Shown here in pieces: positions 10,576 through 38,922 of a DNA stretch of 64,000 nt (positions within the stretch are counted from its first letter, which is position 1; each line of letters opens with the position of its first letter). The notes under the pieces were generated by a model. It searched no databases. It saw only the letters and a list, made by a program, of their open reading frames with translations, and was not told where the DNA came from. The stretch spans positions 449,159,793-449,223,792 of the forward strand of contig NC_053037.3 in assembly GCF_002575655.3 (NCBI RefSeq). Direction: 5' to 3'. This stretch comes from Aegilops tauschii subsp. strangulata. Lineage: Eukaryota > Streptophyta > Magnoliopsida > Poales > Poaceae. A program made the position numbers and the translations under genes.

Positions 10576-11024
10576 TTTGTCATTCTCACCATCTTTTGGC
10601 TGCACGTTGTATCGTTGACAATCAGGGAAGTTTGCTCCCGAACTCCTAGGGCTCGCCGTGTAGACACATTTTTCCATAGCAAACAGAGCCTCTTTGCCAT
10701 CAAGGTCCTTGCCAACAGTGATCTCCTGGTTAATCGGATAATTGAGTCCGAGAAACAGAGAGTGTGAACCAAGGCTGTTTACCCGCCTCCAACAAAAAAA
10801 TCCTAAAGGCCCCAACAAGCTGGTATCCTGCTCATAGACATAACAGCCACTGTCCGGATACTCACGTATTTCACGGTGCTTGTATACAGTGGGGTTTTTG
10901 CAATATAACTTTTCCGGTTCATCTATCCGAGTGATCATCAGTCTTTTGCCGTCGTCTGACCGAGCGAGGAACCAGTTGTGCTTCCCTTTTTTGGCAAAGG
11001 TGGTGTGATTACAAAGGGCAGTAA
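10576..11024 (-). pseudogene. DUF295/KIB-type gene terminal exon, copy 1 (3' truncated)
   Basis: Minus-strand exon from the splice acceptor (CTACAG before 11024) to the break at 10576. Residues match the other copies (HNWFLARSDDGKRLMITRID...; VNSLGSHSLFLGLN; EKCVYTASPRSS), and the frame is lost after ...KDGEND, so the last 16 or so residues are missing. DUF295 is the C-terminal beta-propeller-like region of plant F-box/KIB proteins. It lacks the upstream exon and is a dead fragment. Confidence 0.75.
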
Positions 11025-11047
11025 CTGTAGGGACATTGCATCATATC

Positions 11048-11564
11048 TGTTGAGGATATAGACCTTAGAGTCACCCACCAGGAGGGGCCGGGTTACTCGT
11101 AGGGTCGTTGCAAGAAGCCCGGAGCCAAGTTTCAAGATAATGGGCCAGAGATGGGCTGAGACCCGGATATGGCTTAAAGCCCGTAGTTATCATCATTGTT
11201 ATAGTAGACTTGTAGTGTAAGGCAAGTATTGTTTAGAGTCCGAGCCGGACGCTCTTATGAGCCGGCCGGGACTCTAAGGGCTGCTGGGCGTCAGCCTCCC
11301 TATATAAAGAGAGGACCCGGCAGCGGTTTAAGGGCGACAACAATCTCATCGAGAACCGGGCATAGCTATTTAGCTCCCTGGCGATTGTAACCCTAATCAA
11401 TAACACCTCGAACTGGACGTAGGCTTTTACCTTCACCGTAAGGGGCCGAACCAGTATAAACCCTCGTGTTCCCTGTCCCGCATAACCCCTTCAAGCTTCC
11501 TAGTTGCGATGGCTCCACGACTAAGTCCTAGCTTAAGGACATCTGCCGTGACAATTCCACGACA
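11048..11564 (+). mobile_element. Element G LTR copy in L0 (517 bp)
   Basis: TGTTGAGGATATAGACC to CCACGACA, preceded by ATATC (11043-11047) as in the genuine element. It has a TATA box (CTATATAAAG, about 11299-11308) and is followed by the PBS-like GTTTGCGCCCACCGTGGGGC (11565-11584) and 254 more bases of G leader. It is a duplicated 5' end, not an independent insertion, because host flank and G leader come with it. Confidence 0.9.
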
Positions 11565-11834
11565 GTTTGCGCCCACCGTGGGGCCCGCGCACGGTGGATT
11601 TGAGTTCTTGAAGGGCAGCTTCGAAGGGCTCAAGGGATACGCCGTAGGCCGGATGACCAAGAGTCGTCGCGGCAAGCTCTACATCGACGACGAGGACTGG
11701 GGCCCCGACGCCGGTTCAATTGAGTACGGGTGCCGGGTCCCCTTTGGTGGAATTCATGTCTTCATTGGCAAGGTTGGTGAGCCGGGCCCCGAGCCGGATC
11801 TCTGCGCCGATCTCATCGAAACGGCTCAGCGCGC

Positions 11835-11891
11835 GTGGCCCTAGTGGCTTATCTCGAGGCACAATGCTCCCCAATAAGCCACTAGGGCCAC
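11835..11891. repeat. Inverted repeat at junction J2 (hairpin), first copy
   Basis: GTGGCCCTAGTGGCTTAT (11835-11852) is the exact reverse complement of ATAAGCCACTAGGGCCAC (11874-11891), with a 21-bp loop. The G-leader/X junction falls inside the left arm at 11838/11839. Repeated at every unit start (13503, 19531, 21195, 27223, 28887, 30551); the copies at 19531 and 27223 are also 18-bp perfect, while the other four have GTGACCC in place of GTGGCCC, leaving 14 perfect outer-to-inner pairs. Confidence 0.9.
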
Positions 11892-12590
11892 CGTAATCTC
11901 CTCACGCCCTCGCACAATGCAAGATGCCGTGATTCCACTAAGGGACCCTTGAGGGCGGTCACCGAACCCGTACAAATGGCAACCCTTGGGGGCGGTCACC
12001 GAACCTGTACACTTTGGCAACCCTTGGGGGTGGTCACCGGAACCCGTCAAATTGCTCAGGGCGATGTCCACAATATAATTGGAGACCCCGACGCTTGCCC
12101 GAAGCTTTACACCACAATGATTGAGCTCCGAACACCACCAACCGTCTAGGGCGCCCAAGCACCCAAGAGGAACAAGCTCAAGGGCACCAAGCACCCAAGA
12201 GTAATAAGCTTCGCAACTTGTAACTTCCACGTATCACCGTGGAGAACTCAAACCGATGCACCAAATGCAATGGCAAGGGCACACAGAGTGCCCAAGTCCT
12301 TCTCTCTCAAATCCCACCGAAGCAACTAATGCTAGGGAGGAAAATGAGAGGAAGAACAAGAAGGAGAACACCAAGAACTCCAAGATCTAGATCCAATGGG
12401 TTCCCCTCACATAGAGGAGAAAGTGATTGGTGGAAATGTGGATCTAGATCTCCTCTCTCTTTTCCCTCAAAAACTAGCAAGAATCCATGGAGGGATTGAG
12501 AGTTAGCAAGCTCGAAGAAGGTCAACAATGGGGGAAGAACACGAGCTCAAAGGATAAGGTTCATTGGGGAAGAAGACCTCCTTATATAGT

Positions 12591-12600
12591 GGGGGGAACA
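12591..12600 (-). promoter_or_regulatory. TATA-like box of X (minus strand)
   Basis: Minus strand reads ACTATATAAG here. It is conserved in all seven X copies (for L1 at about 14255-14264). In S units it points away from the G LTR TATA box about 370 bp to the right, giving a divergent promoter pair. Promoter activity is inferred only. Confidence 0.45.
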
Positions 12601-12635
12601 ATCCAACCGTTACCCTCACTCCAGCCCCACAGAGA

Positions 12636-12912
12636 GCGGTACTACCGCTTGGCCAGCGGTATTACCGCTTGCCCCTATAAGCGGTACTACCGCTCCCCCT
12701 CGCGGTACTGCCGCTGGGCCTAGAGCGGTACTACCGCGGTGGCAGGGCGGTACTACCGCAAATGAGTGGTACTACAGCCCCCACTGCCGCGGCTAGCACC
12801 GTAAAGCCCGACACGAAAACAGACCCCTCGAATCGAGGCGGTACTAGCACGAGACCGCAGCGGTACTATGGCTGGGGGCTACCAGCGGTACTACCGCTCT
12901 AGAGCGGTACTA
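12636..12912. repeat. GCGGTACTACCGC palindrome cluster in X (S1)
   Basis: A cluster of the 13-bp palindrome GCGGTACTACCGC and one- to three-base variants such as GCGGTATTACCGC. The cluster is cut at 12912, exactly inside a palindrome (GCGGTACTA|ACGCTC), where junction J3 to the G LTR begins. Confidence 0.85.
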
Positions 12913-13228
12913 ACGCTCTTATGAGCCGGCCGGGACTCTAAGGGCTGCTGGGCGTCAGCCTCCCTATATAAAGAGAGGACCCGGCAGCGGTTTAAGGGCG
13001 ACAACAATCTCATCGAGAACCGGGCATAGCTATTTAGCTCCCTGGCGATTGTAACCCTAATCAATAACACCTCGAACTGGACGTAGGCTTTTACCTTCAC
13101 CGTAAGGGGCCGAACCAGTATAAACCCTCGTGTTCCCTGTCCCGCATAACCCCTTCAAGCTTCCTAGTTGCGATGGCTCCACGACTAAGTCCTAGCTTAA
13201 GGACATCTGCCGTGACAATTCCACGACA
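12913..13228 (+). mobile_element. Partial G LTR in S1 (LTR positions 202-517)
   Basis: Starts ACGCTCTTATGAGCCGG, i.e. 201 bp into the 517-bp LTR, and ends at CCACGACA. The TATA box (CTATATAAAG, 12964-12973) is retained. Same structure at 20605-20920, 28297-28612 and 29961-30276. Confidence 0.9.
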
Positions 13229-14299
13229 GTTTGCGCCCGCCGTGGGGCCCGCGCACGGTGGATTTGAGTTCTTGAAGGGCAGCTTCGAAGGGCTCAAGGG
13301 ATACGCCGTAGGCCGGATGACCAAGAGTCGTCGCGGCAAGCTCTACATCGACGACGAGGACTGGGGCCCCGACGCCGGTTCAATTGAGTACGGGTGCCGG
13401 GTCCCCTTTGGTGGAATTCATGTCTTCATTGGCAAGGTTGGTGAGCCGGGCCCCGAGCCGGATCTCTGCGCCGATCTCATCGAAACGGCTCAGCGCGCGT
13501 GACCCTAGTGGCTTATCTCGAGGCACAATGCTCCCCAATAAGCCACTAGGGCCACCGTAATCTCCTCACGCCCTCGCACAATGCAAGATGCCGTGATTCC
13601 ACTAAGGGACCCTTGAGGGCGGTCACCGAACCCGTACAAATGGCAACCCTTGGGGGCGGTCACCGAACCTGTACACTTTGGCAACCCTTGGGGGTGGTCA
13701 CCGGAACCCGTCAAATTGCTCGGGGCGATGTCCACAATATAATTGGAGACCCCGACGCTTGCCCGAAGCTTTACACCACAATGATTGAGCTCCGAACACC
13801 ACCAACCGTCTAGGGCGCCCAAGCACCCAAGAGGAACAAGCTCAAGGGCACCAAGCACCCAAGAGTAATAAGCTTCGCAACTTGTAACTTCCACGTATCA
13901 CCGTGGAGAACTCAAACCGATGCACCAAATGCAATGGCAAGGGCACACAGAGTGCCCAAGTCCTTCTCTCTCAAATCCCACCGAAGCAACTAATGCTAGG
14001 GAGGAAAATGAGAGGAAGAACAAGAAGGAGAACACCAAGAACTCCAAGATCTAGATCCAATGGGTTCCCCTCACATAGAGGAGAAAGTGATTGGTGGAAA
14101 TGTGGATCTAGATCTCCTCTCTCTTTTCCCTCAAAAACTAGCAAGAATCCATGGAGGGATTGAGAGTTAGCAAGCTCGAAGAAGGTCAACAATGGGGGAA
14201 GAACACGAGCTCAAAGGATAAGGTTCATTGGGGAAGAAGACCTCCTTATATAGTGGGGGGAACAATCCAACCGTTACCCTCACTCCAGCCCCACAGAGA

Positions 14300-14627
14300 G
14301 CGGTACTACCGCTTGGCCAGCGGTATTACCGCTTGCCCCTATAAGCGGTACTACCGCTCCCCCTCGCGGTACTGCCGCTGGGCCTAGAGCGGTACTACCG
14401 CGGTGGCAGGGCGGTACTACCGCAAATGAGTGGTACTACAGCCCCCACTGCCGCGGCTAGTACCGTAAAGCCCGACACGAAAACAGACCCCTCGAATCGA
14501 GGCGGTACTAGCACGAGACCGCAGCGGTACTATGGCTGGGGGCTACCAGCGGTACTACCGCTCTAGAGCGGTACTACCGCTTGTAGCACCCAAGCGGTAC
14601 TACCACTCTGGCCCGCGGTACTACCGC
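14300..14627. repeat. GCGGTACTACCGC palindrome cluster in X (L1)
   Basis: Seven exact copies of the 13-bp palindrome and at least six near copies in about 330 bp, irregularly spaced. Same cluster in L2 (21992-22319) and L3 (31348-31675). The spacing is not regular and there are no spacers of constant length. Confidence 0.88.
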
Positions 14628-15162
14628 TAGGAAACCAAAACTTCCATAACTTCTGCATATGAGCTCCGAATTGAGCAAACTCAAGCTTGTTGGATAGAGG
14701 AAGACGAGTAGCATCAAAACAGCATAACCGAGAAGAACCGGCATAACCTCCAACATCGAAAACATCGTAGAAGATGCGAGTGAACTCCGTTTTCGATGAA
14801 CTCGAGCTTGTCATCAAGATGACCATAAGCTCCAAAACTCACAAAGAGAAGAACCAATAAAGATGATGCAAGGATGCAATGGTTTGAGCTCTCTATGAAC
14901 GATACGATCAAGCTACTCATCGAGAGCCCCCCTTGATAGTACGGCAATCGATCCTATAACCCGGTCTCCCACCTACCATCATGAGACAGGTAAAATAGAA
15001 AACCTATCAAGAGCAAACCTTTCCCTTGCACATGGTCCACTTGAGCTAGATGATGACGATCTTGACTCCCTCAAGTTGGACCACCTTTCTTGGTTGCGTT
15101 GGCTCGATGAAGACTAGTTGATTGCTCCCCCATGCTCCACTATGGGTGAGCCACTCTTCCGC

Positions 15163-15346
15163 ACATCTTCACAAGTCCATTGTCACCACAATGGACAGCA
15201 AGCTTCAAGCATTTGATCTCTTCATGATGCTTCACTTGAACTTGCACACCGCAACATCTTCACAAGTCCATTGTCACCACAATGGACGGCAAGCTTCAAG
15301 CATTTGATCTCTTCATGATGCTTCACTTGAACTTGCACACCGCAAC
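15163..15346. repeat. 91-bp tandem duplication inside X
   Basis: ACATCTTCACAAGTCCATTG recurs at 15163 and 15254; the two 91-bp copies differ by one base (ACAGC/ACGGC). Also present in L2 (22855-23038) and L3 (32211-32394). Confidence 0.85.
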
Positions 15347-15798
15347 CTAAACCCACAAAGAACTCTCACGAAGATCATGGGTTAGTACACAAAGCGTAAT
15401 TGACAATGCTCACCACACCATGGGATCGCTTGATCCCTCTCGGTACATCTTCTACGCTTTGTGAGTTGATCAAGTTGATTCACTCTTGACTTAGTCTTGA
15501 TCAACCATGAATCTTTTCAACTCTCTTCATTTGGATGATGTCTTGAAGATATACATGAATGATCACACAATCTTCTTCTCCAAGACATGCTTGTAATAAG
15601 CTGAACTCTCACATGACCACCCTTTGGATAATTCCTTAATAACACCTTGGTCACCACATAAACTCCTTGAAACCAACACATGAACTTCAAGAAATGCCTA
15701 TGGACAAATCCTTCAAATATAACTCAAGGCAACCATTAGTCCATAGAGATTGTCATCAATTACCAAAACCAAACATGGGGGCACCGCATGTTCTTTCA

Positions 15799-16303
15799 GC
15801 AGCGCAGCAGGGGGGCTGGAGGTAGCTTCAGGCGGCGTCGAGACGGGGGCAACATCCCGAGAGATCGGTGACGACCTACTCCTCATCGGGCTGAGGGGCT
15901 GCTCCCTCTCCCCTTGGCGGGCGTCGGCCTCGGCATCGTCAGGAACGGCGCGGAGGATCTCGGCCTTGTTCAGAGGGGAAGTGTCCCCCACCTCTTCCAG
16001 AGTCTTCTCCGAGTCCACCTCCTCTTCCCCTTCCCCACAGGACTCGTCAGAAGACACCTCCACGGGCTTCGGCGATGCGGGGGCTCCTGTGGGTGCCGGC
16101 GGCACCAGCCCGCGCGCGTCAAAGGTCGGCCTGGAGGCGACGAATTCCTCCCGATCCCTACGCTGGAACAGGGGAATGAAGGCGTTTGGCGGGTACTCCT
16201 GATTGTCCCCAACTATGAGGCGCAGAATAGCAGCCAATTCATCGTCAGGCAGGGCCCCCGGCCTCAGGCGGGTCTTGTTTCCCTCTTCTTCAAGCTCCCA
16301 CAA
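15799..16303 (-). pseudogene. Element A antisense ORF, upstream exon (L1 copy)
   Basis: Minus-strand frame beginning MWELEEEGNKTRLRPGALPD at 16303 and running through an acidic, Ser/Pro-rich region to SSPPAALL at the X insertion point. Past X the frame would run a few residues into X sequence. With X removed it continues at 10518. A further antisense stretch up to 16544 (…LVDLT-like LLDLTKDW) suggests that more coding sequence once existed upstream, but the LTR starts at 16545. Function of these antisense proteins is unknown. Confidence 0.6.
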
Positions 16304-16544
16304 AGGGCGTGCGTGCGCCTGGAGTGAGGCGAGGAAGAAGCAATGAAGGCAAGTGCTGCCTGCGCCAGTCTTTTGTCAGGTCAAGCAGTTGCCGAGGCAG
16401 CATGGGGAAGCGGAGACGCCCATGTCCAATCAACCGCCACGCATCAACCGAGGCCGCAGGCTTTTGGGGCCCGCGGTGCTCCGTACTTGACCCTTGGCTT
16501 CGCTGCGAAGCCAAGCCCGAGCGCACCTTGGGCCCGGGGGCTAC

Positions 16545-17445
16545 TGTCGGCATTTTGGGAACGGGGGTCCCCAGACTTGCCTGCCTGTGGCCCACGACGT
16601 GGCTAAGTCAGCAGGCCGTACGGCCCATCTTCATCAACAAGGCATCCAAGACCCTCCCGAGGGGCCAAGCCTCGCGAGGCGGACCACGCAAGACCTCCTC
16701 AGGAGTGGCCTAGTCAGGTAGGCTCACGAGGAACGGAGATATCAAGGCGGGGCAAACCTCATGAGGCTCTCGTGACGTGAGCCATGATGATCGACACCAG
16801 GCGGGCGCCAGCGCGCATAGCATCATTGTTTCCTCTTTGGTGCTAAGGAGGCCAGCGCAGGCGAGGAGTACCGAGGCATCAGGCAAAGGTTGCTATATCG
16901 GTGCAACAAGACCAAGACCAGGAGGACGGCAAGGCGGAGGTCATCATGGAGCCCAAGACGGCGTCACCACCAGAGCCTTTCGCAGGCGAAGACCACTTTT
17001 GTCAGGATAGCTTGTACTAGCTGTCCCCCTTTAAATTTGCCCGCCGTTGTTGGCTCCCTTCCCGCTCAACATTTGGGAAGAGGACCAGGGCCTATATAAG
17101 TAGAGCTAGCTACCATAGTGAGAGAGATGGGATGGAGCAGTTCACCTAGCTCTCACCCGCCAAGTCACCAAGCACAAGAACACCTCAACCTCAGGAGGCT
17201 GTTCTTTCCCTTGTACTGTTCTTCATCAGCCCAAGAGGCAATCCACCACCACCACACTGAAGTAGGGTATTACACCACAACGGTGGCCCGAACCAGTATA
17301 AATCTCATGTCTCTTTCTGTTGCGAGTTCGTCGAGTTCGTCCGCGAGATCTTAGCGAGCTAGGGCGTAGATCGGTAGGAGGGAAAGACTTCGCGCGCACC
17401 CAAGTGTTCGAACCTTAAGGGTTTGCCGGAACCCCACATCCGACA
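16545..17445 (+). mobile_element. Element A 3' LTR (901 bp), L1 copy
   Basis: Begins TGTCGGCATTTTGGGAACG after the polypurine tract GGGCCCGGGGGCTAC (about 16530-16544) and ends CCCCACATCCGACA at 17445 (TGTCGG/CCGACA inverted ends). TATA box CCTATATAAG at 17091-17100. The following five bases, GAACT, should be one copy of its target duplication; the other side has been lost. Confidence 0.85.
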
Positions 17446-18222
17446 GAACTGGAGTAGGAATCGAGATTCCAGAGGTGGGGAGGGGCGGGAGATTGGGGAT
17501 GAAAATGTAGCTTGAATTTCAAACACGCGCCAATATGCTCTCGGCGCGCAAGCGCACGAAAACACAGGTGGCGCCCACATGTCAGCCTAAGTGTCCTTAT
17601 TCTTTCTTTTTTGGAGAGCCCGGCCTTTTTTTAGGATCTTTTGAGAGCCCGGCCTGAGAGTCATAATTGACCTGTTTGGCATTGCGTTACTACTCGGCCC
17701 ATATTCAATGACACCTCACTGGCCCAAACAAGTGTACATCATCAAAAAGACACTGAGCTCAAATTATATAACTTGAAAAAAGGAGATACACTCTGAACAC
17801 TGGAGAATGGTGATGCCCTCATTTAGCCGACCAGTAGTTCGAGACAATAAACAGTTCGAAACAACGATATATACAACATTCAAACACTGACTAGTGACTA
17901 CTACTGACATAAACAGCAAGACATGATAGTTCATAAGAAGTCTTGCTGACGAGAATGACATTCTAAACAGAGGCAACTATTACATAGTAAGAGTGACATA
18001 GACGAGGATGACCAAATGACAAGGAATATGCATAACAAAAGAAAGAACTACCCATCCAGAACAAGCAGCAAACACAACAAAGTCATTCGAAGAGATGATC
18101 CAACACCATCATAATTTGCAGCCCCGCTTCAACGACCAATGATCCGGAGACACCAGTACTCCACCCTTTCGATGCAACAGCCCAATTACCTATCAACCTG
18201 AAGGCTTGAACCACATCACTGC
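17446..18222 (-). other. Host-gene 3' flank (L1 copy), no gene seen
   Basis: Non-transposon sequence between the A LTR and the stop codon of the DUF295-type exon; it is the gene's 3' untranslated/downstream region by position. It has a small direct repeat (GAGAGCCCGGCC near 17615 and 17653). No coding signal is seen. Other copies at 25138-25914 and 34494-35270. Confidence 0.6.
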
Positions 18223-18716
18223 CTATCGTAATTGAGACATCCAAGGATCAAAGTTAATCCGGATGCCTTTGTCATTCTCACCATCTTTTGGCTGCACGTT
18301 GTATCGTTGACAATCAGGGAAGTTTGCTCCCGAACTCCTAGGGCTCGCCGTGTAGACACATTTTTCCATAGCAAACAGAGCCTCTTTGCCATCAAGGTCC
18401 TTGCCAACAGTGATCTCCTGGTTAATCGGATAATTGAGTCCGAGAAACAGAGAGTGTGAACCAAGGCTGTTTACCCGCCTCCAACAAAAAAATCCTAAAG
18501 GCCCCAACAAGCTGGTATCCTGCTCATAGACATAACAGCCACTGTCCGGATACTCACGTATTTCACGGTGCTTGTATACAGTGGGGTTTTTGCAATATAA
18601 CTTTTCCGGTTCATCTATCCGAGTGATCATCAGTCTTTTGCCGTCGTCTGACCGAGCGAGGAACCAGTTGTGCTTCCCTTTTTTGGCAAAGGTGGTGTGA
18701 TTACAAAGGGCAGTAA
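18223..18716 (-). pseudogene. DUF295/KIB-type gene terminal exon, copy 2
   Basis: Complete terminal exon from acceptor CTACAG (exon base 18716) to TAG at 18223-18225, ending FDPWMSQLR. Identical in translation to the copies at 25915 and 35271. Next to it lies a duplicated G LTR instead of the rest of the intron and the upstream exon, so it is a non-functional fragment. Confidence 0.75.
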
Positions 18717-18739
18717 CTGTAGGGACATTGCATCATATC

Positions 18740-19256
18740 TGTTGAGGATATAGACCTTAGAGTCACCCACCAGGAGGGGCCGGGTTACTCGTAGGGTCGT
18801 TGCAAGAAGCCCGGAGCCAAGTTTCAAGATAATGGGCCAGAGATGGGCTGAGACCCGGATATGGCTTAAAGCCCGTAGTTATCATCATTGTTATAGTAGA
18901 CTTGTAGTGTAAGGCAAGTATTGTTTAGAGTCCGAGCCGGACGCTCTTATGAGCCGGCCGGGACTCTAAGGGCTGCTGGGCGTCAGCCTCCCTATATAAA
19001 GAGAGGACCCGGCAGCGGTTTAAGGGCGACAACAATCTCATCGAGAACCGGGCATAGCTATTTAGCTCCCTGGCGATTGTAACCCTAATCAATAACACCT
19101 CGAACTGGACGTAGGCTTTTACCTTCACCGTAAGGGGCCGAACCAGTATAAACCCTCGTGTTCCCTGTCCCGCATAACCCCTTCAAGCTTCCTAGTTGCG
19201 ATGGCTCCACGACTAAGTCCTAGCTTAAGGACATCTGCCGTGACAATTCCACGACA
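18740..19256 (+). mobile_element. Element G LTR copy in L1 (517 bp)
   Basis: Identical in structure to 11048-11564, with ATATC at 18735-18739 and G leader 19257-19530 following. The leader ends GCGTGG before the next unit. Confidence 0.9.
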
Positions 19257-19530
19257 GTTTGCGCCCACCGTGGGGCCCGCGCACGGTGGATTTGAGTTCT
19301 TGAAGGGCAGCTTCGAAGGGCTCAAGGGATACGCCGTAGGCCGGATGACCAAGAGTCGTCGCGGCAAGCTCTACATCGACGACGAGGACTGGGGCCCCGA
19401 CGCCGGTTCAATTGAGTACGGGTGCCGGGTCCCCTTTGGTGGAATTCATGTCTTCATTGGCAAGGTTGGTGAGCCGGGCCCCGAGCCGGATCTCTGCGCC
19501 GATCTCATCGAAACGGCTCAGCGCGCGTGG

Positions 19531-21194
19531 CCCTAGTGGCTTATCTCGAGGCACAATGCTCCCCAATAAGCCACTAGGGCCACCGTAATCTCCTCACGCC
19601 CTCGCACAATGCAAGATGCCGTGATTCCACTAAGGGACCCTTGAGGGCGGTCACCGAACCCGTACAAATGGCAACCCTTGGGGGCGGTCACCGAACCTGT
19701 ACACTTTGGCAACCCTTGGGGGTGGTCACCGGAACCCGTCAAATTGCTCGGGGCGATGTCCACAATATAATTGGAGACCCCGACGCTTGCCCGAAGCTTT
19801 ACACCACAATGATTGAGCTCCGAACACCACCAACCGTCTAGGGCGCCCAAGCACCCAAGAGGAACAAGCTCAAGGGCACCAAGCACCCAAGAGTAATAAG
19901 CTTCGCAACTTGTAACTTCCACGTATCACCGTGGAGAACTCAAACCGATGCACCAAATGCAATGGCAAGGGCACACAGAGTGCCCAAGTCCTTCTCTCTC
20001 AAATCCCACCGAAGCAACTAATGCTAGGGAGGAAAATGAGAGGAAGAACAAGAAGGAGAACACCAAGAACTCCAAGATCTAGATCCAATGGGTTCCCCTC
20101 ACATAGAGGAGAAAGTGATTGGTGGAAATGTGGATCTAGATCTCCTCTCTCTTTTCCCTCAAAAACTAGCAAGAATCCATGGAGGGATTGAGAGTTAGCA
20201 AGCTCGAAGAAGGTCAACAATGGGGGAAGAACACGAGCTCAAAGGATAAGGTTCATTGGGGAAGAAGACCTCCTTATATAGTGGGGGGAACAATCCAACC
20301 GTTACCCTCACTCCAGCCCCACAGAGAGCGGTACTACCGCTTGGCCAGCGGTATTACCGCTTGCCCCTATAAGCGGTACTACCGCTCCCCCTCGCGGTAC
20401 TGCCGCTGGGCCTAGAGCGGTACTACCGCGGTGGCAGGGCGGTACTACCGCAAATGAGTGGTACTACAGCCCCCACTGCCGCGGCTAGCACCGTAAAGCC
20501 CGACACGAAAACAGACCCCTCGAATCGAGGCGGTACTAGCACGAGACCGCAGCGGTACTATGGCTGGGGGCTACCAGCGGTACTACCGCTCTAGAGCGGT
20601 ACTAACGCTCTTATGAGCCGGCCGGGACTCTAAGGGCTGCTGGGCGTCAGCCTCCCTATATAAAGAGAGGACCCGGCAGCGGTTTAAGGGCGACAACAAT
20701 CTCATCGAGAACCGGGCATAGCTATTTAGCTCCCTGGCGATTGTAACCCTAATCAATAACACCTCGAACTGGACGTAGGCTTTTACCTTCACCGTAAGGG
20801 GCCGAACCAGTATAAACCCTCGTGTTCCCTGTCCCGCATAACCCCTTCAAGCTTCCTAGTTGCGATGGCTCCACGACTAAGTCCTAGCTTAAGGACATCT
20901 GCCGTGACAATTCCACGACAGTTTGCGCCCACCGTGGGGCCCGCGCACGGTGGATTTGAGTTCTTGAAGGGCAGCTTCGAAGGGCTCAAGGGATACGCCG
21001 TAGGCCGGATGACCAAGAGTCGTCGCGGCAAGCTCTACATCGACGACGAGGACTGGGGCCCCGACGCCGGTTCAATTGAGTACGGGTGCCGGGTCCCCTT
21101 TGGTGGAATTCATGTCTTCATTGGCAAGGTTGGTGAGCCGGGCCCCGAGCCGGATCTCTGCGCCGATCTCATCGAAACGGCTCAGCGCGCGTGA
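19531..21194. repeat. Array unit S2 (1664 bp)
   Basis: X 19531-20604, partial G LTR 20605-20920, leader 20921-21194 ending GCGTGA. Carries the S marker CTAGCACCG near 20480. Confidence 0.9.
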
Positions 21195-23995: not shown

Positions 23996-24236
23996 AGGGC
24001 GTGCGTGCGCCTGGAGTGAGGCGAGGAAGAAGCAATGAAGGCAAGTGCTGCCTGCGCCAGTCTTTTGTCAGGTCAAGCAGTTGCCGAGGCAGCATGGGGA
24101 AGCGGAGACGCCCATGTCCAATCAACCGCCACGCATCAACCGAGGCCGCAGGCTTTTGGGGCCCGCGGTGCTCCGTACTTGACCCTTGGCTTCGCTGCGA
24201 AGCCAAGCCCGAGCGCACCTTGGGCCCGGGGGCTAC

Positions 24237-26408: not shown

Positions 26409-26431
26409 CTGTAGGGACATTGCATCATATC

Positions 26432-26948: not shown

Positions 26949-27222
26949 GTTTGCGCCCACCGTGGGGCCCGCGCACGGTGGATTTGAGTTCTTGAAGGGC
27001 AGCTTCGAAGGGCTCAAGGGATACGCCGTAGGCCGGATGACCAAGAGTCGTCGCGGCAAGCTCTACATCGACGACGAGGACTGGGGCCCCGACGCCGGTT
27101 CAATTGAGTACGGGTGCCGGGTCCCCTTTGGTGGAATTCATGTCTTCATTGGCAAGGTTGGTGAGCCGGGCCCCGAGCCGGATCTCTGCGCCGATCTCAT
27201 CGAAACGGCTCAGCGCGCGTGG

Positions 27223-28886: not shown

Positions 28887-30550
28887 CCCTAGTGGCTTAT
28901 CTCGAGGCACAATGCTCCCCAATAAGCCACTAGGGCCACCGTAATCTCCTCACGCCCTCGCACAATGCAAGATGCCGTGATTCCACTAAGGGACCCTTGA
29001 GGGCGGTCACCGAACCCGTACAAATGGCAACCCTTGGGGGCGGTCACCGAACCTGTACACTTTGGCAACCCTTGGGGGTGGTCACCGGAACCCGTCAAAT
29101 TGCTCGGGGCGATGTCCACAATATAATTGGAGACCCCGACGCTTGCCCGAAGCTTTACACCACAATGATTGAGCTCCGAACACCACCAACCGTCTAGGGC
29201 GCCCAAGCACCCAAGAGGAACAAGCTCAAGGGCACCAAGCACCCAAGAGTAATAAGCTTCGCAACTTGTAACTTCCACGTATCACCGTGGAGAACTCAAA
29301 CCGATGCACCAAATGCAATGGCAAGGGCACACAGAGTGCCCAAGTCCTTCTCTCTCAAATCCCACCGAAGCAACTAATGCTAGGGAGGAAAATGAGAGGA
29401 AGAACAAGAAGGAGAACACCAAGAACTCCAAGATCTAGATCCAATGGGTTCCCCTCACATAGAGGAGAAAGTGATTGGTGGAAATGTGGATCTAGATCTC
29501 CTCTCTCTTTTCCCTCAAAAACTAGCAAGAATCCATGGAGGGATTGAGAGTTAGCAAGCTCGAAGAAGGTCAACAATGGGGGAAGAACACGAGCTCAAAG
29601 GATAAGGTTCATTGGGGAAGAAGACCTCCTTATATAGTGGGGGGAACAATCCAACCGTTACCCTCACTCCAGCCCCACAGAGAGCGGTACTACCGCTTGG
29701 CCAGCGGTATTACCGCTTGCCCCTATAAGCGGTACTACCGCTCCCCCTCGCGGTACTGCCGCTGGGCCTAGAGCGGTACTACCGCGGTGGCAGGGCGGTA
29801 CTACCGCAAATGAGTGGTACTACAGCCCCCACTGCCGCGGCTAGCACCGTAAAGCCCGACACGAAAACAGACCCCTCGAATCGAGGCGGTACTAGCACGA
29901 GACCGCAGCGGTACTATGGCTGGGGGCTACCAGCGGTACTACCGCTCTAGAGCGGTACTAACGCTCTTATGAGCCGGCCGGGACTCTAAGGGCTGCTGGG
30001 CGTCAGCCTCCCTATATAAAGAGAGGACCCGGCAGCGGTTTAAGGGCGACAACAATCTCATCGAGAACCGGGCATAGCTATTTAGCTCCCTGGCGATTGT
30101 AACCCTAATCAATAACACCTCGAACTGGACGTAGGCTTTTACCTTCACCGTAAGGGGCCGAACCAGTATAAACCCTCGTGTTCCCTGTCCCGCATAACCC
30201 CTTCAAGCTTCCTAGTTGCGATGGCTCCACGACTAAGTCCTAGCTTAAGGACATCTGCCGTGACAATTCCACGACAGTTTGCGCCCACCGTGGGGCCCGC
30301 GCACGGTGGATTTGAGTTCTTGAAGGGCAGCTTCGAAGGGCTCAAGGGATACGCCGTAGGCCGGATGACCAAGAGTCGTCGCGGCAAGCTCTACATCGAC
30401 GACGAGGACTGGGGCCCCGACGCCGGTTCAATTGAGTACGGGTGCCGGGTCCCCTTTGGTGGAATTCATGTCTTCATTGGCAAGGTTGGTGAGCCGGGCC
30501 CCGAGCCGGATCTCTGCGCCGATCTCATCGAAACGGCTCAGCGCGCGTGA
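28887..30550. repeat. Array unit S4 (1664 bp)
   Basis: X 28887-29960, partial G LTR 29961-30276, leader 30277-30550 ending GCGTGA. Adjacent to S3 without an L unit between them, which breaks the S-L alternation. Confidence 0.9.
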
Positions 30551-32846
30551 CCCTAGTGGCTTATCTCGAGGCACAATGCTCCCCAATAAGCCACTAGGGC
30601 CACCGTAATCTCCTCACGCCCTCGCACAATGCAAGATGCCGTGATTCCACTAAGGGACCCTTGAGGGCGGTCACCGAACCCGTACAAATGGCAACCCTTG
30701 GGGGCGGTCACCGAACCTGTACACTTTGGCAACCCTTGGGGGTGGTCACCGGAACCCGTCAAATTGCTCGGGGCGATGTCCACAATATAATTGGAGACCC
30801 CGACGCTTGCCCGAAGCTTTACACCACAATGATTGAGCTCCGAACACCACCAACCGTCTAGGGCGCCCAAGCACCCAAGAGGAACAAGCTCAAGGGCACC
30901 AAGCACCCAAGAGTAATAAGCTTCGCAACTTGTAACTTCCACGTATCACCGTGGAGAACTCAAACCGATGCACCAAATGCAATGGCAAGGGCACACAGAG
31001 TGCCCAAGTCCTTCTCTCTCAAATCCCACTGAAGCAACTAATGCTAGGGAGGAAAATGAGAGGAAGAACAAGAAGGAGAACACCAAGAACTCCAAGATCT
31101 AGATCCAATGGGTTCCCCTCACATAGAGGAGAAAGTGATTGGTGGAAATGTGGATCTAGATCTCCTCTCTCTTTTCCCTCAAAAACTAGCAAGAATCCAT
31201 GGAGGGATTGAGAGTTAGCAAGCTCGAAGAAGGTCAACAATGGGGGAAGAACACGAGCTCAAAGGATAAGGTTCATTGGGGAAGAAGACCTCCTTATATA
31301 GTGGGGGGAACAATCCAACCGTTACCCTCACTCCAGCCCCACAGAGAGCGGTACTACCGCTTGGCCAGCGGTATTACCGCTTGCCCCTATAAGCGGTACT
31401 ACCGCTCCCCCTCGCGGTACTGCCGCTGGGCCTAGAGCGGTACTACCGCGGTGGCAGGGCGGTACTACCGCAAATGAGTGGTACTACAGCCCCCACTGCC
31501 GCGGCTAGTACCGTAAAGCCCGACACGAAAACAGACCCCTCGAATCGAGGCGGTACTAGCACGAGACCGCAGCGGTACTATGGCTGGGGGCTACCAGCGG
31601 TACTACCGCTCTAGAGCGGTACTACCGCTTGTAGCACCCAAGCGGTACTACCACTCTGGCCCGCGGTACTACCGCTAGGAAACCAAAACTTCCATAACTT
31701 CTGCATATGAGCTCCGAATTGAGCAAACTCAAGCTTGTTGGATAGAGGAAGACGAGTAGCATCAAAACAGCATAACCGAGAAGAACCGGCATAACCTCCA
31801 ACATCGAAAACATCATAGAAGATGCGAGTGAACTCCGTTTTCGATGAACTCGAGCTTGTCATCAAGATGACCATAAGCTCCAAAACTCACAAAGAGAAGA
31901 ACCAATAAAGATGATGCAAGGATGCAATGGTTTGAGCTCTCTATGAACGATACGATCAAGCTACTCATCGAGAGCCCCCCTTGATAGTACGGCAATCGAT
32001 CCTATAACCCGGTCTCCCACCTACCATCATGAGACAGGTAAAATAGAAAACCTATCAAGAGCAAACCTTTCCCTTGCACATGGTCCACTTGAGCTAGATG
32101 ATGACGATCTTGACTCCCTCAAGTTGGACCACCTTTCTTGGTTGCGTTGGCTCGATGAAGACTAGTTGATTGCTCCCCCATGCTCCACTATGGGTGAGCC
32201 ACTCTTCCGCACATCTTCACAAGTCCATTGTCACCACAATGGACAGCAAGCTTCAAGCATTTGATCTCTTCATGATGCTTCACTTGAACTTGCACACCGC
32301 AACATCTTCACAAGTCCATTGTCACCACAATGGACGGCAAGCTTCAAGCATTTGATCTCTTCATGATGCTTCACTTGAACTTGCACACCGCAACCTAAAC
32401 CCACAAAGAACTCTCACGAAGATCATGGGTTAGTACACAAAGCGTAATTGACAATGCTCACCACACCATGGGATCGCTTGATCCCTCTCGGTACATCTTC
32501 TACGCTTTGTGAGTTGATCAAGTTGATTCACTCTTGACTTAGTCTTGATCAACCATGAATCTTTTCAACTCTCTTCATTTGGATGATGTCTTGAAGATAT
32601 ACATGAATGATCACACAATCTTCTTCTCCAAGACATGCTTGTAATAAGCTGAACTCTCACATGACCACCCTTTGGATAATTCCTTAATAACACCTTGGTC
32701 ACCACATAAACTCCTTGAAACCAACACATGAACTTCAAGAAATGCCTATGGACAAATCCTTCAAATATAACTCAAGGCAACCATTAGTCCATAGAGATTG
32801 TCATCAATTACCAAAACCAAACATGGGGGCACCGCATGTTCTTTCA

Positions 32847-33351
32847 GCAGCGCAGCAGGGGGGCTGGAGGTAGCTTCAGGCGGCGTCGAGACGGGGGCAA
32901 CATCCCGAGAGATCGGTGACGACCTACTCCTCATCGGGCTGAGGGGCTGCTCCCTCTCCCCTTGGCGGGCGTCGGCCTCGGCATCGTCAGGAACGGCGCG
33001 GAGGATCTCGGCCTTGTTCAGAGGGGAAGTGTCCCCCACCTCTTCCAGAGTCTTCTCCGAGTCCACCTCCTCTTCCCCTTCCCCACAGGACTCGTCAGAA
33101 GACACCTCCACGGGCTTCGGCGATGCGGGGGCTCCTGTGGGTGCCGGCGGCACCAGCCCGCGCGCGTCAAAGGTCGGCCTGGAGGCGACGAATTCCTCCC
33201 GATCCCTACGCTGGAACAGGGGAATGAAGGCGTTTGGCGGGTACTCCTGATTGTCCCCAACTATGAGGCGCAGAATAGCAGCCAATTCATCGTCAGGCAG
33301 GGCCCCCGGCCTCAGGCGGGTCTTGTTTCCCTCTTCTTCAAGCTCCCACAA
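32847..33351 (-). pseudogene. Element A antisense upstream exon, L3 copy
   Basis: Same as 15799-16303; probably the original location, with the rest of A to its left replaced by array units. Confidence 0.6.
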
Positions 33352-33592
33352 AGGGCGTGCGTGCGCCTGGAGTGAGGCGAGGAAGAAGCAATGAAGGCAA
33401 GTGCTGCCTGCGCCAGTCTTTTGTCAGGTCAAGCAGTTGCCGAGGCAGCATGGGGAAGCGGAGACGCCCATGTCCAATCAACCGCCACGCATCAACCGAG
33501 GCCGCAGGCTTTTGGGGCCCGCGGTGCTCCGTACTTGACCCTTGGCTTCGCTGCGAAGCCAAGCCCGAGCGCACCTTGGGCCCGGGGGCTAC

Positions 33593-34493
33593 TGTCGGCA
33601 TTTTGGGAACGGGGGTCCCCAGACTTGCCTGCCTGTGGCCCACGACGTGGCTAAGTCAGCAGGCCGTACGGCCCATCTTCATCAACAAGGCATCCAAGAC
33701 CCTCCCGAGGGGCCAAGCCTCGCGAGGCGGACCACGCAAGACCTCCTCAGGAGTGGCCTAGTCAGGTAGGCTCACGAGGAACGGAGATATCAAGGCGGGG
33801 CAAACCTCATGAGGCTCTCGTGACGTGAGCCATGATGATCGACACCAGGCGGGCGCCAGCGCGCATAGCATCATTGTTTCCTCTTTGGTGCTAAGGAGGC
33901 CAGCGCAGGCGAGGAGTACCGAGGCATCAGGCAAAGGTTGCTATATCGGTGCAACAAGACCAAGACCAGGAGGACGGCAAGGCGGAGGTCATCATGGAGC
34001 CCAAGACGGCGTCACCACCAGAGCCTTTCGCAGGCGAAGACCACTTTTGTCAGGATAGCTTGTACTAGCTGTCCCCCTTTAAATTTGCCCGCCGTTGTTG
34101 GCTCCCTTCCCGCTCAACATTTGGGAAGAGGACCAGGGCCTATATAAGTAGAGCTAGCTACCATAGTGAGAGAGATGGGATGGAGCAGTTCACCTAGCTC
34201 TCACCCGCCAAGTCACCAAGCACAAGAACACCTCAACCTCAGGAGGCTGTTCTTTCCCTTGTACTGTTCTTCATCAGCCCAAGAGGCAATCCACCACCAC
34301 CACACTGAAGTAGGGTATTACACCACAACGGTGGCCCGAACCAGTATAAATCTCATGTCTCTTTCTGTTGCGAGTTCGTCGAGTTCGTCCGCGAGATCTT
34401 AGCGAGCTAGGGCGTAGATCGGTAGGAGGGAAAGACTTCGCGCGCACCCAAGTGTTCGAACCTTAAGGGTTTGCCGGAACCCCACATCCGACA
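33593..34493 (+). mobile_element. Element A 3' LTR, L3 copy
   Basis: TGTCGG...CCGACA with polypurine tract upstream and TATA box CCTATATAAG near 34139. Confidence 0.85.
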
Positions 34494-35270
34494 GAACTGG
34501 AGTAGGAATCGAGATTCCAGAGGTGGGGAGGGGCGGGAGATTGGGGATGAAAATGTAGCTTGAATTTCAAACACGCGCCAATATGCTCTCGGCGCGCAAG
34601 CGCACGAAAACACAGGTGGCGCCCACATGTCAGCCTAAGTGTCCTTATTCTTTCTTTTTTGGAGAGCCCGGCCTTTTTTTAGGATCTTTTGAGAGCCCGG
34701 CCTGAGAGTCATAATTGACCTGTTTGGCATTGCGTTACTACTCGGCCCATATTCAATGACACCTCACTGGCCCAAACAAGTGTACATCATCAAAAAGACA
34801 CTGAGCTCAAATTATATAACTTGAAAAAAGGAGATACACTCTGAACACTGGAGAATGGTGATGCCCTCATTTAGCCGACCAGTAGTTCGAGACAATAAAC
34901 AGTTCGAAACAACGATATATACAACATTCAAACACTGACTAGTGACTACTACTGACATAAACAGCAAGACATGATAGTTCATAAGAAGTCTTGCTGACGA
35001 GAATGACATTCTAAACAGAGGCAACTATTACATAGTAAGAGTGACATAGACGAGGATGACCAAATGACAAGGAATATGCATAACAAAAGAAAGAACTACC
35101 CATCCAGAACAAGCAGCAAACACAACAAAGTCATTCGAAGAGATGATCCAACACCATCATAATTTGCAGCCCCGCTTCAACGACCAATGATCCGGAGACA
35201 CCAGTACTCCACCCTTTCGATGCAACAGCCCAATTACCTATCAACCTGAAGGCTTGAACCACATCACTGC

Positions 35271-35764
35271 CTATCGTAATTGAGACATCCAAGGATCAAA
35301 GTTAATCCGGATGCCTTTGTCATTCTCACCATCTTTTGGCTGCACGTTGTATCGTTGACAATCAGGGAAGTTTGCTCCCGAACTCCTAGGGCTCGCCGTG
35401 TAGACACATTTTTCCATAGCAAACAGAGCCTCTTTGCCATCAAGGTCCTTGCCAACAGTGATCTCCTGGTTAATCGGATAATTGAGTCCGAGAAACAGAG
35501 AGTGTGAACCAAGGCTGTTTACCCGCCTCCAACAAAAAAATCCTAAAGGCCCCAACAAGCTGGTATCCTGCTCATAGACATAACAGCCACTGTCCGGATA
35601 CTCACGTATTTCACGGTGCTTGTATACAGTGGGGTTTTTGCAATATAACTTTTCCGGTTCATCTATCCGAGTGATCATCAGTCTTTTGCCGTCGTCTGAC
35701 CGAGCGAGGAACCAGTTGTGCTTCCCTTTTTTGGCAAAGGTGGTGTGATTACAAAGGGCAGTAA
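35271..35764 (-). pseudogene. DUF295/KIB-type gene, terminal exon (ancestral copy)
   Basis: Minus-strand exon from acceptor CTACAG (exon starts 35764) to TAG at 35271. It encodes about 164 residues: KHNWFLARSDDGKRLMI, FCWRRVNSLGSHSLFLGLN, EALFAMEKCVYTASPRSS, ending FDPWMSQLR. This fits the C-terminal half of DUF295 (KIB1-4/F-box beta-propeller-like) proteins, which end in a 'LFLG...N.VY' region and a W-x-P-like tail; many are F-box adaptor candidates. Two bases precede the first full codon, matching the single base left by the upstream exon at 49550. The gene is dead: 13 kb of element G lies in the intron and the 5' part is lost. Family assignment is by motif recognition. Confidence 0.72.
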
Positions 35765-35787
35765 CTGTAGGGACATTGCATCATATC

Positions 35788-36304
35788 TGTTGAGGATATA
35801 GACCTTAGAGTCACCCACCAGGAGGGGCCGGGTTACTCGTAGGGTCGTTGCAAGAAGCCCGGAGCCAAGTTTCAAGATAATGGGCCAGAGATGGGCTGAG
35901 ACCCGGATATGGCTTAAAGCCCGTAGTTATCATCATTGTTATAGTAGACTTGTAGTGTAAGGCAAGTATTGTTTAGAGTCCGAGCCGGACGCTCTTATGA
36001 GCCGGCCGGGACTCTAAGGGCTGCTGGGCGTCAGCCTCCCTATATAAAGAGAGGACCCGGCAGCGGTTTAAGGGCGACAACAATCTCATCGAGAACCGGG
36101 CATAGCTATTTAGCTCCCTGGCGATTGTAACCCTAATCAATAACACCTCGAACTGGACGTAGGCTTTTACCTTCACCGTAAGGGGCCGAACCAGTATAAA
36201 CCCTCGTGTTCCCTGTCCCGCATAACCCCTTCAAGCTTCCTAGTTGCGATGGCTCCACGACTAAGTCCTAGCTTAAGGACATCTGCCGTGACAATTCCAC
36301 GACA
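35788..36304 (+). mobile_element. Element G 5' LTR
   Basis: TGTTGAGG...CCACGACA; TATA box CTATATAAAG near 36039. An imperfect inverted repeat, GAGTCCGAGCCGG (35976-35988) and CCGGCCGGGACTC (36002-36014), lies upstream of the TATA box; S-unit junctions break at the end of its left arm. Confidence 0.93.
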
Positions 36305-36324
36305 GTTTGCGCCCACCGTGGGGC
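36305..36324 (+). other. Element G primer binding site
   Basis: GTTTGCGCCCACCGTGGGGC directly follows the 5' LTR. This is the expected position and the usual look of a TAT-lineage site; I do not assign the tRNA. Confidence 0.65.
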
Positions 36325-36392
36325 CCGCGCACGGTGGATTTGAGTTCTTGAAGGGCAGCTTCGAAGGGCTCAAGGGATACGCCGTAGGCCGG

Positions 36393-38922
36393 ATGACCAA
36401 GAGTCGTCGCGGCAAGCTCTACATCGACGACGAGGACTGGGGCCCCGACGCCGGTTCAATTGAGTACGGGTGCCGGGTCCCCTTTGGTGGAATTCATGTC
36501 TTCATTGGCAAGGTTGGTGAGCCGGGCCCCGAGCCGGATCTCTGCGCCGATCTCATCGAAATGGCTCAGCGCGCGTGACCCGCTCGGGCCCGGCCTGCCT
36601 TAAGGCGCGCTTTTGTGGGATGTATCCATGGAGGGCCCTCTGATCCTTCCGGGTCTCGTGATGAGGCGGCCGCCGGCTCTGATGGCGAGTCGGCCACCGA
36701 TGAATCAAACTCGTTGTACCAACTCCAAGATAGTAGGCTCATGGGTTGTTTCGATGGCGACAGCATTCCGGACCTTTTTGAACCGCCAAGTCAGGTTGGA
36801 GTTTTTATGGCCGGTGCGCAGCCTATTCAGAACCCCGCTGCTGGAGCGAGAAACCCGGTGCCTTCCCCGGCCCAGGTGCTGATGTATCTCACGGACAAGA
36901 TGACGGCCCTGTTAACCGCCACGGTCGACCCGGCGGATCAAGCTCAGCATGATGCGGAGGTGGCGCAGTTAAAATTAGATCTGATAAAGGCTAAAGAGGA
37001 TCTCGCAGCGGAAGGAATCAGGCTGGCTGCGGAGCGGGCGGCCCTCGATGCCCGGACTCAGCTAATTCAGGCGCAGTCCTTCCAACTCACGATGGACCAG
37101 AACGCGGCCAACGAGGTTATGAGAAGGAGGCATCAGAAGGCCCAGTCTCGACTCCCGCCGGTCTACGATCCACTCAATCTCTTTAAAACGCCGGGTGCAG
37201 GGTCTAGTAACCCGCCAGGAGTCATTGCGCCCGGGTCTGGACCCCTTATTCAGCCACGAATGATGGGGCCACCCCAGGTGCCCCCTGCCCCGCCTCAGTA
37301 TGTGCCAATACCCCCGGGTCATTATGATAACCCGCTAGAAAACATGGTGGCTGCAGCAGCACGGCTGGCGGCTCTCCACGTTGACGGCGATTCTCCGGCG
37401 GCCATCGAAACCCGCCGGGTCAGGGAACTCCTGCAGACGGCACTAGCACAGCAAGAGGCGTACTCCTACAGCCGGGACAGGATCCACTCAACCCCTCGTC
37501 CAGGCCAGAGCCCGAGTTACAGCCGGCACATGGTCTCAGCGACCGGCTCAAGTAATGTCCGACGCCACGACCCGCCCCCTGGTCATGGCCCAGCTCATAA
37601 TGGAGCCTTCTACGTAGAAGACCAACCACACCAAGAGGTGGAGCAGGCGCCTCAATTGACGGCTTACCAGACCCCCCCCCCCCCCGGCTTATCCGACGAC
37701 GTCCGTTGATGTAGGAATTTCTACCAGGACCGGGGGAGTCCCTTGTTTGGTACCAGCCATCCGTAATGAACGTCTACCTAAGGACTTCAAGGGCCCTAGG
37801 AAGGTGCCTAACTATACAGCGGACTTACAGCCTGCAGCTTGGATTGAGAGTTATGAGATGGCTATGGAATTACTAGAGGTCAGCGAGGCGGCCATGGCCA
37901 AATATTTCACCATGATGTTAGATGGAACTGCCCGTACGTGGTTAAAAGGGCTACCACCGAACTCCATTGGGTCCTGGGCTGAGCTGAAAGCCCGGTTCAT
38001 TCAAAACTTCAAAGATACCTGCAGGCAATCTATGTCAATTATGGATTTGACTAACTGCAAGCAGCAGGAGGGCGAGTCCACGACCCATTGGGTTCGCCGG
38101 ATCAAGGAGATCATACATTCATCAGATAAGATGGATGCCGGCTCTGCAGTCTTAATGTTGGAACAGAACTGTCGCTTTGTGCCCCTTAAGATGAAGCTTG
38201 GGCGGCTCAAGCGCGACTGCACCGATATGGGTACCCTAATGGCGGCTCTTGTCAAATACGCCGATTCCGATGGTACCAAGGATCCCCCTTCAGATGATGA
38301 AAGGGCAGGGAAGGGAAAGAAGAATGGCAACGGCAAGGGTCCTCCGTTTAACCCGGGGAACCAAGGAGGAGGCAAGCGTAAGGCCGATGGCAGCCTAGAG
38401 TTTGTGGCCAACACCACCTCTCAAGGTAATAACCAGCGGCGCAAGGGGAGGCCCCCTCCCCGAGGCGGCGGGTCAGGACCTTCTCTGGAGCAGCTATTGA
38501 ACGAACCTTGTCCGAGACACGGCTCTAGAGAGAAGCCAGCGACTCATCTGTGGAAGGATTGTGCTATCATGAAGGCCTTTAAAAACTACAATGGACCGGG
38601 TGGCGGCTCAGGCGCCGGCGGCTCAGGTGCCGGCGGCTTTCATGGCCCGGGCGGTGGTTCAAATTCTGGTCCTCAGAACGGCCAAGGGGGCTTTAATCAA
38701 CAGTCTGGTCATCAACAGCAGCAGGGGGGTTATCAGACCAACCCGAAGCAGCTTAGCGGTGGACAGTATCACGTGTTCACCACTAGCTTGTGCAAACGAG
38801 ACGAGAAGCTTCACAAGAGGGCTGTTAATGCTGTTGAGCCGGCAGTTCCACGCTACTTATGGTGGTCTGAGCAGCCCATAGTGTGGAGTAGGGAGGATCA
38901 CCCCCCCCCCCCGGGTGGATAA
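36393..38922 (+). pseudogene. gag: Element G gag (two lesions)
   Basis: An open frame runs from the leader (possible ATG at 36393, MTKSRRGKLYIDDEDWG) to a TGA at 36576-36578, then on in the same frame (36579-37709). It shifts at a C14 run (37672-37685) into the frame 37686-38922. The region around 37800-38285 is a Retrotrans_gag capsid domain (WIESYEMAMELLEVSEAAMA; TARTWLKGLP). A C-x2-H...H-x4-C cluster (CPRHGSREKPATHLWKDC, about 38508-38561) replaces the classic knuckle, as in TAT elements, followed by a Gly/Gln-rich tail. A second shift at a C12 run (38901-38912) leads to protease. In three duplicated leaders the TGA is TGG (Trp). Confidence 0.8.

What the first reader, a model, noticed from the sequence alone, without database searches (positions are those of the whole stretch)
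10576..36578. A young higher-order tandem array made of nested transposons and a gene fragment
Seven complete units plus one truncated unit (order L0 S L S L S S L; S=1664 bp, L=6028 bp) repeat a composite of an LTR-like insertion, a gypsy 3' end with LTR, the terminal exon of a DUF295-type gene and another gypsy's 5' LTR and leader. Three insertions and a host exon share one period, so the locus was amplified as a block after nesting. Units differ by only a handful of bases over 6 kb. The last unit is continuous with the source element at 36579, which identifies the founder. This looks like the birth of a complex satellite from a nested-TE locus.
Basis: partly seen in the sequence, partly recalled or inferred. 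Interest (0 to 1): 0.88.

Follow-up and report, generated by a model that had tools for sequence, protein, structure and literature searches.

The report
Young tandem array seeded by repair
In what is probably a wild-wheat genome, a break inside a stack of jumping genes seems to have been patched with a copy of nearby DNA, and the resulting pair of direct repeats then multiplied into a young 26-kilobase tandem array, a well-preserved early stage of a known way in which satellite DNA can begin.

Summary
The array is in the sequence: 10576-36581, 26,006 bp, units of 6028 (L) and 1664 (S) bp in the order (1266-bp block) S L S L S S L, no indels between units, 11 variable sites. Insertion footprints show both flanks are native: solo-LTR-like R starts left of the array and ends in the last unit, with GCAGC on both sides; gypsy G has ATATC, gypsy E has GAACT. 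So the array grew in place. The "DUF295 gene" is not a host gene but part of a dispersed element K with at least 37 other copies. The leftmost "truncated unit" is better read as a repair patch: 277 bp of R replaced by a 1266-bp copy of downstream K-G sequence, with 3-bp microhomology on one side and a 14-18-nt inverted templated insertion on the other. This left 1266-bp direct repeats around 4762 bp; unequal exchange between them gives the 6028-bp unit. One later deletion made S. Variable sites fit one tree, 10 of 11 are transitions; rough age 12-51 thousand years at an assumed rate. TE-derived arrays are known; this is an unusually complete early one. No reads were available.

The parts
10514..10518 (.). 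Left target-site duplication of R (GCAGC), in the native 5' part of gypsy E
10519..10575 (+). First 57 bp of solo-LTR-like insertion R (TGAAAG...), native left edge; joint j1 at 10575|10576 with 3-bp microhomology TTT
   Evidence: 5 genomic R copies
10576..11841 (+). u0: 1266-bp block (K exon piece + G 5' LTR + leader), 2 mismatches to 35316-36581; read here as the repair patch that seeded the array
11842..11855 (+). 14-bp insertion at the G-leader/R joint (j2); with the preceding bases an inverted copy of R sequence that starts at 11874. Present at all 7 j2 joints; the exact inverted match is 18 nt in 3 of 7 and 14 nt in 4 of 7
11842..13505 (+). u1, S unit (1664 bp); S joint j3 at 12912|12913
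13506..19533 (+). u2, L unit (6028 bp)
19534..21197 (+). u3, S unit
21198..27225 (+). u4, L unit
27226..28889 (+). u5, S unit
28890..30553 (+). u6, S unit
30554..36581 (+). u7, L unit, native right-hand copy, continuous with G
32847..32851 (.). Right target-site duplication of R (GCAGC), after R ends ...TTCTTTCA at 32846
32852..34493 (+). 3' part of gypsy E, LTR 33593-34493; E's 5' LTR lies left of the window (locus L024 from 8511); TSD GAACT
34494..35787 (-). Part of dispersed element K with a KIB1-4/DUF295 (PF03478) exon; K continues at 48820-49889
35788..48819 (+). Gypsy element G; LTRs 35788-36304 and 48303-48819 (6 of 517 differ), TSD ATATC; its 5' LTR and leader up to 36581 are in the array unit

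Best explanation
Patch-and-amplify. Element E had inserted in repeat K, R in E, and G in K. Then a double-strand break in R was repaired by synthesis on downstream DNA: about 277 bp of R were lost and filled with a 1266-bp copy of the K-G region that stood about 4.8 kb to the right, closed with a short inverted templated insertion (end joining with template switching, as in SD-MMEJ or polymerase-theta joining). This left 1266-bp direct repeats flanking a 4762-bp segment. Unequal exchange between them, most likely between sister chromatids, created and multiplied the 6028-bp unit (4762 + 1266). In one unit a 4364-bp end-joining deletion made S, and L-S pairs then multiplied. Shown: the anatomy, native flanks, what is inserted in what, the joints, the identity of each joint in all its copies, and the relationships of the units. 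Inferred: that j1 and j2 arose in one repair event, that j3 came after j2, the enzymes, and unequal exchange as the amplifier. No function of the array is proposed beyond what it inherits (the repeated G LTR piece keeps a TATA-like motif); it is a product of repair and recombination.
For: The array begins and ends with the same 1266-bp block, 2 mismatches. j1 and j2 lie only 277 bp apart in R, as the two sides of one break would. Joint j2 carries 14 bp absent from 5 of 5 R copies; with the bases before it, it is an 18-nt (u0, u2, u4) or 14-nt (u1, u3, u5, u6) exact inverted copy of R sequence about 20 bp further on, while the native G sequence at the same point gives 6 nt; 100,000 random pairs gave at most 14 nt (2 pairs) and 5,415 adjacent non-array windows at most 13 nt (1). 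Target duplications and empty sites place E, R and G. All copies of j2 carry the same insertion and all copies of j3 the same joint, so each arose once. No two of the 11 variable sites conflict (0 of 55 pairs). A 14-bp templated insertion with a template about 20 bp away was described at a 1.1-Mb deletion in wheat and ascribed to end joining with synthesis (PMC7156093, passages).
Against: The patch model and the duplication-then-deletion model give the same final anatomy; the preference rests on parsimony. Site 589 has A in the S units although u0, the supposed oldest block, has G, so an extra change or conversion is needed in S if G was the founding state. Joint j3 has no microhomology and needs a separate event. 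With 7 periods, unequal exchange cannot be told from other homologous routes such as break-induced replication. The empty site of R in two E copies is contiguous but not exact at the site itself. Correctness of the assembly was not tested with reads.
Confidence: 0.57

Rival explanations
1. Tandem duplication first, deletion later: a 6028-bp tandem duplication (G leader joined to R+334) founded the array, amplification followed, and a separate 5040-bp deletion then removed R+57 to the K exon in the leftmost unit, leaving u0 as a truncated L.
Against: Needs two events instead of one, and the deletion end must fall by chance within 277 bp of the duplication end.
Confidence: 0.23
2. Replication-based template switching (FoSTeS/MMBIR) with several jumps between R and the K-G region created u0 and S in one catastrophe, followed by homologous amplification.
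For: All three kinds of joint connect R with the K-G region; j2 has an inverted templated insertion, j1 3 bp and j3 0 bp of microhomology.
Against: One event cannot give both the full L next to G and S flanked by j2 on both sides without later homologous exchange.
Confidence: 0.1
3. Assembly artefact: a small real duplication was over-expanded, or the array length and order are wrong.
For: No reads or second accession could be examined. No junction peptide was found in public protein sets (7 of 7 hits for j2; 120 listed of 238 for j3). An erroneous duplication at a tandem-repeat block was corrected in an earlier Ae. tauschii assembly (PMC8664484, passages). Another tandem array, H, adjoins.
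Against: Variable sites fit a single tree; 10 of 11 are transitions (P 1.3e-4 for 10 or more if one change in three were a transition); 4 of 5 C-to-T or G-to-A changes are at CpG (contexts read; the direction of the fifth, site 4179, is unresolved); no indels between units and no Ns in the window or the 12 flanking pieces.
Confidence: 0.1

Closest known systems
CRM1TR and CRM4TR of maize (PMC3648361; abstract and Discussion read)
   Same: Tandem repeats made from the LTR and adjoining untranslated leader of Ty3/gypsy elements, with unit ends inside LTR and leader; the S unit here also uses 316 bp of LTR and 277 bp of leader. Their start is ascribed to illegitimate recombination.
   Different: Those derive entirely from centromeric retrotransposons, began at least about 4 and 1 million years ago, and show gene conversion. 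Here the unit spans four elements, the array is far younger by a rough estimate, no conversion is detectable, and both native flanks survive. The place relative to the centromere is unknown to me.
sobo satellite of wild potato and E3900 of rye (as described in the PMC3648361 Discussion; originals not read)
   Same: Satellites that include gypsy retrotransposon sequence; sobo has a composite 4.7-kb monomer.
   Different: Sobo spans about 360 kb; the founding locus is not described in what I read. Here one locus with 7 periods and its founder.
End-joining junctions with templated insertion in wheat (locus with a 14-bp templated insertion and a 1.1-Mb deletion, PMC7156093; passages read)
   Same: Short insertion copied from about 20 bp away at a junction in a Triticeae genome.
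   Different: There it closes a deletion; here it closes a copied 1266-bp block and so leaves direct repeats.
Patch-mediated insertions and tandem duplications in grasses (Wicker and others 2010; Vaughn and Bennetzen 2014; recalled, not held)
   Same: Double-strand breaks filled with copied DNA, as I recall.
   Different: I recall no case followed through to a multi-unit composite array; not checked in print.

Membership tests
Retrotransposon-derived tandem repeat array (CRM1TR/CRM4TR kind) | Head-to-tail units made of transposon sequence | tested here: met
   The four main pieces of the unit (G LTR and leader, R, E 3' part, K) each have dispersed copies elsewhere
Retrotransposon-derived tandem repeat array (CRM1TR/CRM4TR kind) | Parent element identifiable and breakpoints mapped | tested here: met
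Retrotransposon-derived tandem repeat array (CRM1TR/CRM4TR kind) | Homogenisation by gene conversion between units (reported for CRM1TR; not needed for the kind as a whole) | tested here: inconclusive
   0 of 55 site pairs conflict, so none is detected; with 9 of 11 sites private the power is low
Satellite DNA | Long arrays of many units, often at several loci | tested here: not met
   7 periods, one locus; joints found nowhere else in the assembly
Higher-order repeat | Multimeric period of diverged monomers | tested here: inconclusive
   L-S pairs of 7692 bp occur twice in full and once in part (u2-u3, u4-u5, u0-u1), but S is a deleted L, not a diverged monomer
SD-MMEJ / polymerase-theta joint | Short templated insertion copied from next to the joint | tested here: met
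   18- or 14-nt inverted match against random and adjacent controls (an earlier control)
SD-MMEJ / polymerase-theta joint | Dependence on the enzyme | not testable with these tools
   needs mutants

The most novel reading that the evidence does not exclude
Break repair that copies a kilobase patch into a nested-transposon stack is a general seed of complex satellites: the patch creates the long direct repeats that unequal exchange needs, and this locus is caught between seeding and take-off, still polymorphic in unit number. Site 589, where the L joints form a perfect 18-nt inverted repeat, would record the templated synthesis or a later hairpin-templated correction.
Probability: 0.3. Interest if true: 0.68.

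Novelty: new member of a known kind. Interest (0 to 1): 0.5.

Why it matters
How a satellite starts is usually lost, because old arrays have erased their founder and flanks. Here the nested insertions, both native flanks, all three kinds of joint and the founder are legible to the base, and the array is probably only tens of thousands of years old, so the steps from repair to array can be tested in other accessions of the same species and in the wheat D genome.

Tried and rejected
Rejected: that the left flank is foreign (R start and GCAGC found). Rejected: that the DUF295 exon is a single-copy host gene. Considered and not favoured: integration of an extrachromosomal circle, because both flanks are native and collinear. 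Searched for independent sequence of the joints through junction-spanning reading frames in public proteins: 7 hits for j2 and 238 for j3 (120 listed); junction peptides were looked for in all 217 proteins held and found in 0. Such frames are rarely predicted, so this says little. K was searched for CACTA-type ends in 5 loci and the window: none. The start of copia A's 5' LTR was looked for with a short recalled motif and not found, so A's target duplication is not established. Short matches were dropped before counting: under 150 bp, 120 bp, 400 bp. Paper searches: 10 of 10 used.
Full report
Source. The window is C3:449159793-449223792 of a 4.10-Gb assembly with 692 contigs. Contig lengths (C1 507.5, C2 654.3, C3 629.9, C4 528.8, C5 584.4, C6 497.5, C7 652.2 Mb) resemble Aegilops tauschii pseudomolecules (Chr1 502.0 and Chr2 650.5 Mb in Aet v5.0, passages of PMC8664484). 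That is an inference; the assembly is unnamed and its sequencing method is unknown to me.

Observation. Self-comparison finds the array as described, with the right edge at 36581. Placed on one axis, the eight blocks account for all 26,006 bp with no indels. The block 10576-11841 equals 35316-36581 but for 2 bases. The G-leader/R joint (j2) occurs 7 times and the S joint (j3) 4 times; in the whole assembly, with up to 2 mismatches, no others were found.

Nesting and native flanks. G has matching LTRs and ATATC on both sides, and 3 of 3 K copies printed show the empty site with a single ATATC. E's 5' LTR lies in L024 (from 8511) and its 3' LTR ends at 34493; GAACT stands on both sides, and 3 of 4 K copies show GAACT once at the empty site, the fourth GAGCT. 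R copies elsewhere start TGAAAG and end TTCTTTCA; 4 of 4 complete copies among five inspected have target duplications, read by eye (5 bp in three, 7 bp in one). In the window R starts at 10519 after GCAGC and ends at 32846 before GCAGC. Two of two E copies fetched run from the left flank of the array into the right side of R, contiguous but with small differences at the site itself. So E's left part, left of the array, and E's right part, in the last unit, were once one element, and the array expanded between them. Copia element A lies left of 8451 in the same stretch; its own target duplication is not established.

The 'gene fragment'. The 1294-bp stretch 34494-35787 has 37 other places at 92-94% among 40 scored of 1650 candidates. 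K copies at four of four loci fetched continue into 48820-49889, two share 9.86 kb at 95.9%, and one carries KIB1-4 beta-propeller exons (PF03478, below Pfam's cut-off) and a 3'-5' exonuclease piece (PF01612). Some close protein relatives are listed with PF03478. K is therefore a large dispersed element with gene pieces; its class is open.

Joints. j1 (10575|10576): 5 of 5 R copies read ATTACGGTTTAGG, the window ATTACAG TTT GTCATT, the K side GCC TTT GTC: 3-bp microhomology, allowing one base difference in R. j3 (12912|12913 and three others): no microhomology; it cuts one of the GCGGTACTACCGC motifs of R (7 in R, 0 outside the array). j2: 14 bp, TAGTGGCTTATCTC, are absent from 5 of 5 R copies. 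Read with the G bases before it, the joint is an exact inverted copy of R sequence, 18 nt long in u0, u2 and u4 and 14 nt long in u1, u3, u5 and u6; the native continuation of G gives 6 nt. Controls: 100,000 random pairs gave at most 14 nt, in 2; 5,415 adjacent windows outside the array at most 13 nt, in 1; an earlier control of 198,738 pairs, array included, gave 14 nt or more in 4. The base that makes the difference is site 589 (A in 6 of 6 G copies), so that site may be templated and not an ordinary mutation.

Model. j1 and j2 lie 277 bp apart in R and enclose a 1266-bp copy of sequence that stood about 4.8 kb further right. One break in R, filled from there, explains both. It leaves direct repeats of 1266 bp around 4762 bp; exchange between them yields a 6028-bp unit, which is the unit seen, and an array that starts and ends with the 1266-bp block, as seen. 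The alternative, a tandem duplication followed by a 5040-bp deletion in the first unit, needs two events and a coincidence of 277 bp. This choice is an inference.

History and age. Of 11 variable sites, 9 are private to one unit, one (589) joins u0, u2, u4, one (1548) joins all four S units; no pair conflicts (0 of 55). Ancestral states were read from 6 G copies and 5 or 6 R copies; site 573 is C in 5 of 6, and site 4179 is unresolved (2 E copies disagree). 10 of 11 changes are transitions, 9 of 10 if 589 is set aside. With an assumed rate of 1.3e-8 per site and year (recalled), 9 private changes over 26,006 bp give about 27 thousand years (12-51 thousand, counting error only). By class the figures scatter: S units 58 (19-135), u2 and u4 13 (1.5-46), u7 26 (3-92) thousand years. 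LTR ages with the same rate: G 0.45, E 1.6, A 0.19 million years, the last from the part of the LTR in the window. Hidden conversion would make the array look too young.

Against. No reads, no second accession. A search of public proteins gave no junction peptide. A second tandem array, H, begins at about 49870 and keeps a 9.48-kb period to about 74544, with further H pieces at 97-98% to about 77714; either the neighbourhood is prone to such events or this counsels caution about the assembly. An earlier Ae. tauschii assembly held an erroneous duplication at a tandem-repeat block (PMC8664484 passage).

Comparison. Retrotransposon-derived tandem repeats are well known: CRM1TR and CRM4TR (PMC3648361, abstract and Discussion), Ogre-derived arrays in grass pea (PMC7004042, passages), an LTR element carried along in a tomato rDNA-derived satellite (PMC2679016, abstract), and co-amplification with tandem repeats in rye (PMC4857426, abstract). 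A 2025 review lists mechanisms (PMC12628747, passages); in the passages I saw, a repair patch as seed is not named. In the listings of the ten paper searches (named under Tried and rejected) I saw no report of this locus; they cover open-licence papers only.

Verdict. A real feature of the assembly, young, grown in place, with a repair-made seed the likeliest start. It is a new member of a known kind with unusually complete anatomy; interest 0.5.

Noticed in passing
49870-64000, continuing to about 74544 in L025 and L030: A second tandem array: a minus-strand gypsy element (gag, protease, RNase H, integrase, weak chromodomain), period about 9.48 kb, about 2.6 units (99.3-99.9% alike where compared), about 1 kb from G's right end; further H pieces follow to about 77714.
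   Followed up: partly
34494-35787 and 48820-49889; L026-L029: Large dispersed element K (9.86 kb shared by two copies) carrying KIB1-4/DUF295 and 3'-5' exonuclease pieces, at least 37 other copies; class unknown, no CACTA ends seen.
   Followed up: partly
11838 and equivalents (site 589): The A/G difference between S and L joints is exactly the base that turns a 14-nt into an 18-nt perfect inverted repeat: founding state or later hairpin-templated correction.
   Followed up: partly
12633-12760 and equivalents: R holds near-palindromic GCGGTACTACCGC motifs (7 in the copy at 30554-32846, 0 outside the array); the S deletion joint falls inside one.
   Followed up: partly
1-8451: Copia element A beside the left part of E, with nearly identical LTR parts (8 mismatches and one gap in 1609); its start lies left of the window and its target duplication was not found.
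   Followed up: partly
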